From Chryseobacterium koreense CCUG 49689 (GTDB lineage: Bacteria > Bacteroidota > Bacteroidia > Flavobacteriales > Weeksellaceae), in assembly GCF_001045435.1 (NCBI RefSeq), contig NZ_LFNG01000018.1:1-40777 (forward strand): a stretch of DNA of 40,777 nt, given 5' to 3'. A program made the translations under genes and the position numbers. Within the stretch, counting starts at the first letter, position 1. Every line of letters starts with the position of its first letter. The notes under the pieces were generated by a model, which saw nothing but the letters and a program-made list of their open reading frames with translations, ran no database searches and was not told where the DNA came from. Of this stretch, positions 37,427 to 39,969 are shown one piece after another.

Positions 37427-37473
37427 TTTGTGAATTGCTTTCAGAATTTATTACCTTCGTGACGAAGCACAAC
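37427..37473 (+). CRISPR. Single 47-nt type II-C CRISPR repeat remnant
   Basis: The 47 bases start TTTGTGAATTGCTTTCA and end GAAGCACAAC. This strongly resembles the 46-48-nt repeats of Bacteroidota type II-C arrays, which begin GTTGTGxxTTGCTTTCA. The ends are complementary (TTGTG / CACAA). The copy lies just downstream of cas2, where such arrays sit. No second copy or spacer is visible, so the array has collapsed to one degenerate repeat. An internal TTACCTTCG resembles the TAnnTTTG promoter core that II-C repeats can carry. A tracrRNA anti-repeat is less likely, given the orientation and position. Confidence 0.65.
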
Positions 37474-37482
37474 CTCAATTCA

Positions 37483-37507
37483 AAAACCTCCTGATCCAGG
37501 AGGTTTT
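37483..37507. terminator. Bidirectional hairpin terminator
   Basis: A perfect 11-bp stem AAAACCTCCTG / CAGGAGGTTTT with an ATC loop. It is T-rich on both strands and placed between the CRISPR repeat remnant and the cas2 stop. Confidence 0.85.
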
Positions 37508-37531
37508 GATGAGGTTTTTAGCATTCAAAAA

Positions 37532-37870
37532 TCAGAATAATTCAAGCTGCTGATACGTCGGTGGCGGCTCTTCTTTGCTTCTGGCATAAAACAGTTCGAT
37601 GTCACCAAACTGTTTATCGGTAATATTCATAATGGCGACCTTACCATATTTTGGCAACCAACTTTTCACTCTTTTGATGTGTACCTGGGCATTTTCGCGA
37701 CTGGGACAATGCCGTATATAAATTGAAAACTGAAACAAGGCAAACCCGTCATCCTCCAATCTTTTCCTGAAAAGATTGGCGGCCCGCTGCATGGCTTTGG
37801 TTTCAGTCGGCAAATCGTATAACACCATGACCCACATAATTCGGTAAGCGTTAAATCGTTCGGCGTTCAT
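37532..37870 (-). CDS. cas2: CRISPR-associated endonuclease Cas2 (type II-C)
   Basis: A 112-aa structural partner of Cas1 in spacer integration. The ferredoxin-like fold and the metal-site D19 are in [11 protein letters not shown]. The [16 protein letters not shown] block (47-62) and [13 protein letters not shown] are typical of type II Cas2 proteins. The length is normal and no defect is visible. It lies 50 bp downstream of cas1 on the same strand. Confidence 0.95.
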
Positions 37871-37920
37871 TTTTTATGGTGAAAGATACCATGTAAAAAG
37901 TACAATGGCCTTCAAATAAT

Positions 37921-38814
37921 TCAAATTAAAACAGGAAAAGAGATGATCCGTTTTTCTCCCGTATAGCACTTGTATAAGGAAGAAACGGTTGTTTTTACTG
38001 CCACCATCAGTGGACGGTTCAGCCGGTCAATATTGGTGTCTTTTGTTGCAATACTGATCAAATACGCTTTGAGTTCTTTGGTCAGCTCTTCGGCATCGGG
38101 ATGTGTTTTCAGCCAGTTCATCACCATTAAATCCACATAAGGGCGATACGGCTCCATTAAATCATCAGCAAGACAGTACGGATTGTATTTATTTTTATGA
38201 AATATCCCCAACACAGGAAGTAATCCGGTTTCTACAATCGCCCTAGCAACAATGCTTCGCAAAACAATATATCCAAAATTGAATAGATGGTTCGGACTGT
38301 CACCATATCTGCCACGCAGGAAATCCGGATGGATGAGATATTTCCAATAATGTTGGGCGGCAATCCCTTCCATATTGGTGATATCACCCGATTTCACATT
38401 TTTTAGATACTCGTGCATGGGTTCGAAATAATTGCCTAACTTTTCCAGAACAGCGATTTGGTTGGATATTTTACATTCTACGGTTTGCTTCCACAACTGT
38501 TTTTTCAGCGGTTCGCTTGCTTCTAACTGATTTTTCACTCTTTCCGAATGTTCAGTATGACCAAAAATCGGAAGCATCTGACCTTTCGGCATGTGCTGTT
38601 CATCACAACTGATGACGACTACATTATGGTCCATCATTTTCTGAATCAGCTGGTGTGAAAGTGTAATCTGAAAATGATCCAGCATCAGCAAACCCAAATC
38701 CTCCACCGCCACTTTGCCTTTCGGCTCCTTAGTTTCAGGACACAAGATGTACATCTGATGGTCTTTGAGCTTCAGATAAGCAGGATTGCCGATGTAGATG
38801 GAGCGGTAGAGCAT
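37921..38814 (-). CDS. cas1: CRISPR-associated integrase Cas1 (type II-C)
   Basis: A 297-aa metal-dependent integrase that inserts new spacers together with Cas2. The catalytic set is present: E149 (NMEGIAAQHYW), H206 (GIFHKNKYNP) and D218 with E221 (LADDLMEPYRPYVD). The N-terminal beta-sandwich (RSIYIGNPAYLKLKDHQM) is complete. The length is typical of type II Cas1. It starts 3 bp after the cas9 fragment stop, so the original operon order cas9-cas1-cas2 is kept even though cas9 is broken. Confidence 0.95.
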   Translation of the reverse strand: MLYRSIYIGNPAYLKLKDHQMYILCPETKEPKGKVAVEDLGLLMLDHFQITLSHQLIQKMMDHNVVVISCDEQHMPKGQMLPIFGHTEHSERVKNQLEASEPLKKQLWKQTVECKISNQIAVLEKLGNYFEPMHEYLKNVKSGDITNMEGIAAQHYWKYLIHPDFLRGRYGDSPNHLFNFGYIVLRSIVARAIVETGLLPVLGIFHKNKYNPYCLADDLMEPYRPYVDLMVMNWLKTHPDAEELTKELKAYLISIATKDTNIDRLNRPLMVAVKTTVSSLYKCYTGEKRIISFPVLI

Positions 38815-38817
38815 CTT

Positions 38818-39969
38818 TTAGAATTTCCAAAAAATTTTACCATCAAGTGAAATTTCAAAATCTTCTCCTTCAAACAGAAAATTCCATTTTTCTTTTGACA
38901 TCTTTAAAAGTGGTGTTTCCCCTTCTTTTTCTATAAACGATGACTGTTTTTTAAATCCATCAAGACTTCTTTTTAGTTTTTGTACTTCGTCAGAGCCCAT
39001 AAACGGTATTAATCTATTAAATCTATTGTCTTTCAACCCAACGAATCTAAATTTATCATCCTCATATTTTTTCTTACGTTGTAGTGGATCAGTAATATCA
39101 TAGTCCAAAACTATTTCAGGAAGATTAAATTTTTTATCAAATTCTGAAATTATTTCGTCTTTTTTCAATTTGACCTTTCTATCAATATCATCATCTTTTA
39201 TTGCTTCCAAGTGATATTTTAACCATATACTACCATCTGAAAATTGAGTAATAACATAAAGTCTTTTTTGCTGAAAGTCTATTTCATTTTTCCTTTCATA
39301 TTCATTATCGTTATTAAGAACTAAAAGCTTTTGACCAACTTTGAGAAGTGTAAAACTCCAATCTATAAATTCCGGATAATTATTTTCAATAAAATCCTCA
39401 GTTTTGAAATTTTTGAATTTTCTATAGTGCTTTGAGGTTTCAAATGATGGAACGGGAAACATTACTTTTTGTAATTCATTATTAATAGTTTTTTGTAATA
39501 ACAAAGCGTAAGGAATCTCATCTGAAGCTGCGTAATATTTATTCTTGTAGTCGTATTGAGAAATATAATTAACTCGTTTTTTAACCTCTCGTCCAGCTTT
39601 TGTTTTAATTCTTACGTGACGAATAATATTTCCTTGATGGTCTTTTATCTCATTATTGTCCTTTTGTTCTATAACTAATTTTTTAATTACAGGGTCAATA
39701 ATATCATCAATTTTACTAAGCACATCTTTTATTGGCTTTCTAACTGCAAATAGAAATTTTTCATCTCCTTTTTTATATTCCCATTCGTTTTGATTATTTC
39801 TTTTCGGTTGTCCGTTATTGTATCTTTCTACATCTCTTATTTTCGCCAAGAAAGTATCTTTATACAAAGAACTTCTTATTGTATCACCTTTTGCATTCTT
39901 AATAATTTTAGCGCCATTTTCATCATATAAAAATTTATAATCGGCAAATCGAAAAGTAAGCTTTTTCAA
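38818..39969 (-). pseudogene. cas9: 5'-truncated cas9 (type II-C), C-terminal third only
   Basis: 383 codons opening with TTG and no proper start context; an in-frame TGA lies about 37 bp upstream. Residues 28-44 (KGDTIRSSLYKDTFLAK) match the conserved segment just after RuvC-III in Bacteroidota Cas9, usually GDTIRGSLHKDTFYGAI. FAVRKPI and IDDIIDPVIKKLV follow at 75-98. The remainder is the PAM-interacting/C-terminal region, ending ISLDGKIFWKF. The whole N-terminal ~1000 residues (RuvC-I/II/III, recognition lobe, HNH) are missing, so no DNA cleavage is possible. The remnant itself is not frameshifted. Confidence 0.85.

What the first reader, a model, noticed from the sequence alone, without database searches (positions are those of the whole stretch)
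37427..39969. Broken type II-C CRISPR-Cas locus with intact adaptation genes
cas1 and cas2 keep all visible catalytic residues and the normal cas9-cas1-cas2 order. cas9 has lost its RuvC, HNH and recognition parts but keeps an undamaged 383-codon C-terminal frame. The array is reduced to one repeat-like sequence. An undamaged remnant frame implies either a recent deletion or selection to keep the C-terminal part, which in type II-A is known to matter for PAM choice in spacer acquisition. A retained PAM-interacting fragment working with Cas1-Cas2 would be unusual.
Basis: partly seen in the sequence, partly recalled or inferred. Interest (0 to 1): 0.7.

Follow-up and report, generated by a model that had tools for sequence, protein, structure and literature searches.

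The report
Mu-like prophage splits cas9 gene
In this Chryseobacterium-group bacterium the gene for the CRISPR cutting enzyme Cas9 is not deleted: its two halves lie on separate contigs, each joined to one end of a Mu-type virus that likely jumped into the gene, which would disarm the immune system although its memory-making genes look intact.

Summary
Contig C40 of the same genome carries its first 1,084 codons with HNH and RuvC-III. There cas9 runs into 69 bases of a phage left end; in the window the remnant runs into 842 bases of the phage right end. Both sides carry AATT; joined with one copy they give an unbroken 1,454-codon Cas9 (six fetched relatives: 1,450-1,460). C47 overlaps C40 by 170 identical bases and continues into a MuA-like transposase and MuB-like ATPase; C24 overlaps the window's end (169 of 170) and carries an endolysin. 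A second, related prophage lies elsewhere in the genome. So the open 383-codon frame fits a recent insertion better than a deletion or selection for a PAM domain. The array looks collapsed to one repeat; which lesion came first is unknown. Two spacers of relatives match this phage family above chance. No contig spans the whole insert. Closest precedents: fF4-like transposable prophages of Flavobacteria, and DMS3 lysogens of Pseudomonas that lose CRISPR through phage transposition. A natural, junction-resolved case of known processes.

The parts
38818..39935 (-). cas9, 3' part (host sequence; WED/PI-like region), interrupted after codon 1,084
   Evidence: Homologues named Csn1; frame continues that of C40:4007-7257 to 1,454 codons; fold
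39932..39935 (-). target-site duplication AATT, right copy (left copy at C40 = L015:7254-7257)
39936..40777 (-). right end of the Mu-like prophage, up to the end of the contig
   Evidence: 92-94% to the right end of the second prophage on C22, 84% to the right end of the complete G015 prophage, last 170 bases 169/170 to the end of C24
40052..40690 (-). prophage gene for a thymidylate-synthase-like protein
   Evidence: Pfam Thymidylat_synt over cut-off, phrog_160; queries began two codons after the ATG
37921..38814 (-). cas1, intact
   Evidence: TIGR03639 type II Cas1; 79% to Cas1 of L045 without gaps; the only Cas1 found in the genome
37532..37870 (-). cas2, intact
   Evidence: TIGR01573 and PF09827 over cut-off; 82% to L045 without gaps
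37428..37473 (-). single CRISPR repeat (46 nt matched; 47 nt in most relatives)
   Evidence: Same layout as repeats of relatives' arrays; only copy in the assembly
37483..37508 (-). hairpin between cas2 and the repeat, terminator-like
   Evidence: Read from the sequence; L045 has a hairpin of different sequence at the same place

Best explanation
The window's cas9 fragment is the 3' part of a full-length type II-C cas9 whose 5' part lies on another contig (C40) of the same genome, and the gene was most likely split by the insertion of one Mu-like transposable prophage, whose left end abuts the 5' part and whose right end abuts the 3' part. Mechanism: a phage with a MuA-like transposase and a MuB-like ATPase would have joined its TACACC...GATTATA ends to a 4-bp staggered cut in cas9, leaving AATT on both sides (the duplication is seen; the chemistry is inferred from the family). 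The break falls after codon 1,084, so the HNH and RuvC parts are on one side and the WED/PI-like region on the other; no working Cas9 is expected (inferred). A predicted tracrRNA, cas1, cas2 and one repeat remain, so what is left could at most write spacers, not cut (inferred). The array was probably collapsed by recombination between its first and last repeat (inferred); the order of the two events is unknown.
For: 5' part with HNH_4, RuvC_III and Cas9_a over cut-off in a 1,087-aa frame on C40:4007-7267. Six full-length relatives read through the break. Phage sequence at both breaks, 4-bp duplication, 1,454-codon empty-site frame ending at the remnant's own stop. C40 and C47 overlap by 170 identical bases and C47 runs on into phrog_310 transposase and phrog_296 transposition protein. 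C24 overlaps the window end at 169 of 170 and carries an endolysin. Three other insertions of the same element share its two ends with their own 4-bp duplications AAAG, CAAG, AATG. A complete 36,531-bp copy lies on one contig of G015, onto which C47, C24 and the window end map in order.
Against: No single contig spans the insert, about 5.5 kb between C47 and C24 is not placed, and reads were not available. The left and right ends at cas9 could belong to two prophages. For G008 only one end was found. A 4-bp duplication and TA ends differ from phage Mu (5 bp, TG/CA ends; recalled).
Confidence: 0.9

Rival explanations
1. An insertion did split cas9, but the two parts have since been moved apart by recombination between the two related prophages of this genome, so that they no longer flank one prophage.
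For: Two related prophages in the genome; no contig spans the insert; DMS3 polylysogens of P. aeruginosa show large rearrangements (PMC11406979, abstract, passages and one section seen).
Against: The left and right junctions pair by their duplications as cas9 (AATT) and copy 2 (AAAG); mdh sequence flanks both sides of the locus, as if it were still in one place.
Confidence: 0.06
2. Assembly chimera: cas9 is whole in the real genome and phage ends were joined to it by mistake.
For: Draft assembly of 64 contigs; the break lies where contigs end.
Against: Both junctions carry exact element ends shared with other insertions, a matching 4-bp duplication, and C47 independently repeats the left junction. 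The two truncated proteins are each listed from 2 contigs, the longest 80,129 and 44,933 bases, which points to a second assembly; those contigs were not seen.
Confidence: 0.02
3. Deletion of the 5' part of cas9, with a C-terminal PAM-interacting fragment kept by selection to serve Cas1-Cas2.
For: The frame is open, its fold resembles Cas9 C-terminal parts, and cas1 and cas2 are intact.
Against: The 5' part exists on C40; the frame begins in phage DNA and its first ATG is codon 170.
Confidence: 0.02

Closest known systems
fF4-like transposable prophages of Bacteroidetes (PMC7761591; passages and sections 3.3-3.5 seen)
   Same: Repressor, DDE transposase, ATP-binding protein at the left; structural genes; reported from Flavobacterium, Chryseobacterium and Elizabethkingia; a DNA-modification gene among the last ORFs, where the window's phage has a thymidylate-synthase-like gene.
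   Different: About 32 kb there, 36.5 kb for the G015 copy here. No sequence comparison with fF4 itself was made. In the parts read there, no insertion in cas9 is described.
DMS3 (Mu-like) lysogens of Pseudomonas aeruginosa PA14 (PMC11406979; abstract, passages and one results section seen)
   Same: A Mu-like phage damages the host's CRISPR locus by transposition; polylysogeny.
   Different: There type I-F-like cas genes and large deletions under known self-targeting; here type II-C, a single insertion in cas9, self-targeting not shown.
Intact orthologous locus L045 (MAG of uncultured Chryseobacterium sp., CAJYLO010000016.1)
   Same: Same Cas9 family (79% over residues 1-1452), near-identical predicted tracrRNA, about 445 bp between the cas1 stop and the first repeat in both.
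   Different: Cas9 uninterrupted (1,460 aa) and 44 repeats.

Membership tests
Type II-C CRISPR-Cas | cas9-cas1-cas2 in this order, without csn2 or cas4 between or next to them | tested here: met
   Order read and, for the 5' part, C40; families. Neighbouring genes were read by eye, not searched for csn2 or cas4.
Type II-C CRISPR-Cas | Uninterrupted Cas9 with RuvC, HNH and PAM-interacting region | tested here: not met
   All parts are in the genome but on two contigs, each running into phage DNA.
Type II-C CRISPR-Cas | Array of repeats and spacers | tested here: not met
   One repeat, no other copy of its core in the assembly.
Type II-C CRISPR-Cas | tracrRNA | tested here: inconclusive
   Anti-repeat, stem-loops and U run upstream of cas9, fold z -2.86, conserved in L045; no Rfam match at gathering threshold.
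Mu-like transposable phage | MuA-like transposase followed by MuB-like ATPase, with a repressor near the left end | tested here: met
   phrog_310 and phrog_296, helix-turn-helix protein on C47.
Mu-like transposable phage | Low target specificity with a short target duplication | tested here: met
   Four insertions with different 4-bp duplications; Mu itself makes 5 bp (recalled).
Mu-like transposable phage | Head, tail and lysis genes after the transposition genes | tested here: met
   Baseplate hub families on copy 2 (C22), endolysin on C24; C22 and C24 collinear with the G015 prophage. Head genes were not searched.
Mu-like transposable phage | Inducible, forms particles | not testable with these tools
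   -
Retained PAM-domain fragment helping Cas1-Cas2 | Fragment expressed and needed for spacer acquisition | not testable with these tools
   Only start-codon positions were read.

The most novel reading that the evidence does not exclude
A Mu-like phage family that is a target of type II-C immunity in this bacterial family ended the conflict in nature by landing in cas9 itself: the lysogen that survived is the one whose cutting enzyme the phage broke, with the memory wiped to one repeat and Cas1-Cas2 left as a spacer writer without an effector.
Probability: 0.2. Interest if true: 0.6.

Novelty: new member of a known kind. Interest (0 to 1): 0.36.

Why it matters
It corrects a false lead: the fragment is not a minimal Cas9 but one part of a recently interrupted gene whose other part is in the same assembly. 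It also gives a natural, junction-resolved case of a transposable phage disabling a type II CRISPR locus in a cell that carries two such prophages, so the laboratory finding from Pseudomonas (CRISPR loss through Mu-like transposition) can be looked for in nature. It shows that a cas9 'remnant' on one contig should be checked against the rest of the assembly.

Tried and rejected
Deletion of cas9: dropped once the 5' part was found. A 5-bp duplication (AATTT), first taken from the cas9 site alone: replaced by 4 bp when other insertions were compared. A preference of the phage for defence genes: the flanks read for four other insertions gave no clear pattern; their genes were read by eye only. 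Selection on the remnant by dN/dS: computed, little informative because dS is near saturation. Relatives by the remnant protein in genome contigs: none. Solved relatives of the remnant by sequence: none. Family models for the remnant: none in Pfam, only weak unrelated NCBIfam and PADLOC hits. Annotated phages near the transposase: four records, 25-26% identity. Left ends of more distant prophages from the family search: not recognised reliably. Papers reporting a prophage inside cas9: I saw none in the listings (open-licence library; one search used exact phrases and found no paper; of the listed papers only PMC7761591, PMC11406979 and passages of PMC12135933 were opened).

Full report
Where the window lies. 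The window is the whole contig C18 (40,777 bases) of a 3.15-Mb genome in 64 contigs.

The missing part. A search of the own genome with the Cas9 family model finds matches in one open frame on C40, 4007-7267, 1,087 aa, with HNH_4, RuvC_III and Cas9_a over their cut-offs. Six full-length relatives that I fetched (1,450-1,460 aa, 73-87% identical to this frame) read through the point where C40 and the window break off. C40 reads GGTGAATT and then TACACCCC; the window reads GATTATA and then AATTTTTATATG. With one AATT kept, the two parts give 1,454 codons without a stop, ending at the remnant's own stop at 38818.

What sits between. C40 ends 69 bases into the insert; its last 170 bases equal the first 170 of C47. 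C47 continues with a helix-turn-helix protein, a 684-aa transposase (phrog_310), a 292-aa transposition protein (phrog_296) and another ATPase. The window's last 170 bases match the end of C24 at 169 of 170; C24 carries an endolysin and is collinear with the structural region of other copies. A second, related prophage runs from C51 to C22: 90-95% identical to C47 over about 4.4 kb at the left, 92-94% to the window at the right end, and 73-90% to C24 in the structural stretches compared. In G015 the element lies whole on one contig, 7533 to 44063, 36,531 bp; C47, C24 and the window end map to it in order, with about 5.5 kb between C47 and C24 not placed. Copy 2's flanks from C51 and C22 (77% and 94% identical) meet at G015:2759-2763, an unoccupied site. 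No contig spans the insert in cas9, so that one prophage lies between the two parts is inferred.

Ends and duplications. The element begins TACACC and ends GATTATA. Four of five insertions examined show both ends: cas9 AATT, copy 2 AAAG, G015 CAAG, G005 AATG (the ends of copy 2 and of G005 lie on two contigs each); for G008 only the right end was found. A 5-bp duplication fits the cas9 site but not the other three. The transposase is found in the own genome (two copies) and in 3 of 59 other relatives, and in 32 of 320 genomes of the family, own included.

What is left of the immune system. Upstream of cas9 on C40 a 106-nt stretch on the other strand has an anti-repeat, stem-loops and a run of U (fold z -2.86) and is almost unchanged in L045, so a tracrRNA is predicted; Rfam has no match at its gathering thresholds. 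Of 80 relatives fetched by Cas1 (the best 80 of 159), 65 have an array of 3 or more repeats. The window's repeat starts about 445 bp after the cas1 stop, as in L045; its cas2 side looks like a first repeat, and its far side, lacking the final C, like L045's terminal repeat, which suggests collapse. The assembly has no other copy of the repeat core. Of the 15 loci without such an array, L037 and L041 show one repeat in the 9 kb scanned although their cas9 frame is long, so arrays can empty without a cas9 lesion. Of the 80, 61 have a frame of at least 1,250 codons directly before cas1 and 10 more have one of over 1,400 a little further upstream; 3 (L049, L052, L078) have split or shorter frames, and 6 are cut by contig ends. 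So 3 of 74 that can be judged lack a long frame; the cause was not studied.

Age and selection. Against L045, dN/dS is 0.06 for the first 1,083 codons and 0.22 for 369 aligned codons after the break, with dS near saturation (1.2 and 1.6). This shows past purifying selection on both parts and says little about the time after the break. The lack of any other lesion in 1,454 codons fits a recent insertion. The C-terminal region is much more diverged from L045 (54% identity) than the rest (88%); in its last 154 residues the relative P0040 is closest of five compared (67%).

Conflict with the phage. 2,259 spacers were extracted from the relatives; 55 from arrays with a consensus under 45 nt (L067, L096) were dropped, leaving 2,204, of which a few of L086 may be counted twice. 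Against 65,012 bases of the two prophages, four score 20 or more (matches minus mismatches minus twice the gaps), two of them 24; reversed spacers reach 18 on the phage and 19 on a 47-kb host control, true spacers 19 on that control; 15 dinucleotide shuffles of the phage reach at most 20, with 0-1 spacers of 20 or more. The two best are from Epilithonimonas mollis (26 of 30) and Chryseobacterium elymi (26 of 30 in both copies, 27 in G015). So II-C arrays of relatives have met this phage family. Whether this host targeted its own prophage cannot be told, as no spacer remains. Against the conflict reading: G005 and G015 carry the prophage together with a Cas9, empty arrays occur with long cas9 frames, and the other insertions lie in other places.

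Known context. fF4-like transposable prophages are described from Flavobacterium, Chryseobacterium and Elizabethkingia, in most with a DNA-modification gene among the last ORFs (PMC7761591, passages and sections). In P. aeruginosa PA14, lysogens of the Mu-like phage DMS3 under self-targeting lost the CRISPR region through phage transposition in 7 of 18 isolates and became polylysogens (PMC11406979, abstract, passages and one section). I saw no report of a prophage inside cas9 in the listings, which cover an open-licence library only. I file the case as a natural example of a known kind of event.

Noticed in passing
window 40052-40690: Thymidylate-synthase-like gene as the last gene of the prophage. 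In the alignment the Asn of 'PFNI' in thymidylate synthases is Asp ('PADI'), a change that I recall from dCMP hydroxymethylases, so it may make a modified cytosine for phage DNA. The second prophage has a deletion of about 97 bp in this gene.
   Followed up: partly
window 36840-36903; L015 (C40) 1645-2571: The CRISPR locus is flanked on one side by a full malate dehydrogenase gene and on the other by a 64-bp piece of a malate dehydrogenase 3' end (80% identical, same orientation relative to cas9, frames). In G010 (L011) the same gene is followed by a different cas9. The locus may have come as an island into this gene's 3' end.
   Followed up: partly
L015 (C40) 3806-3880: A decayed 24-codon start of another type of cas9 (MKKTVLGLDLGTNSTG...) just before the predicted tracrRNA and the present cas9; similar starts are found in other loci. 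It suggests that one cas9 module replaced another.
   Followed up: partly
L066, L068, L071, L081, L084, L091, L092, L094, L095 upstream of cas1: Nine of 80 relatives have a frame of 153-243 aa between cas9 and cas1. It may be the pro-CRISPR factor PcrIIC1 known with CbCas9 (name seen in structure titles, link recalled).
   Followed up: no
window 38818-39600 against P0025, P0028, P0034, P0036, P0040 and L045: The Cas9 C-terminal region is far more diverged between relatives than the rest, as if the PAM-interacting part were exchanged or evolving fast.
   Followed up: partly
window 1-821, 4896-5262 and 23751-25202: Families of long repeats, partly inverted, about 85-92% alike within the contig.
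   Followed up: no
L029 (C22) 38-2566: Beside the second prophage lie two genes on one strand that read like an ATPase and a trypsin-like peptidase (by eye), an arrangement reminiscent of defence pairs; not searched.
   Followed up: no
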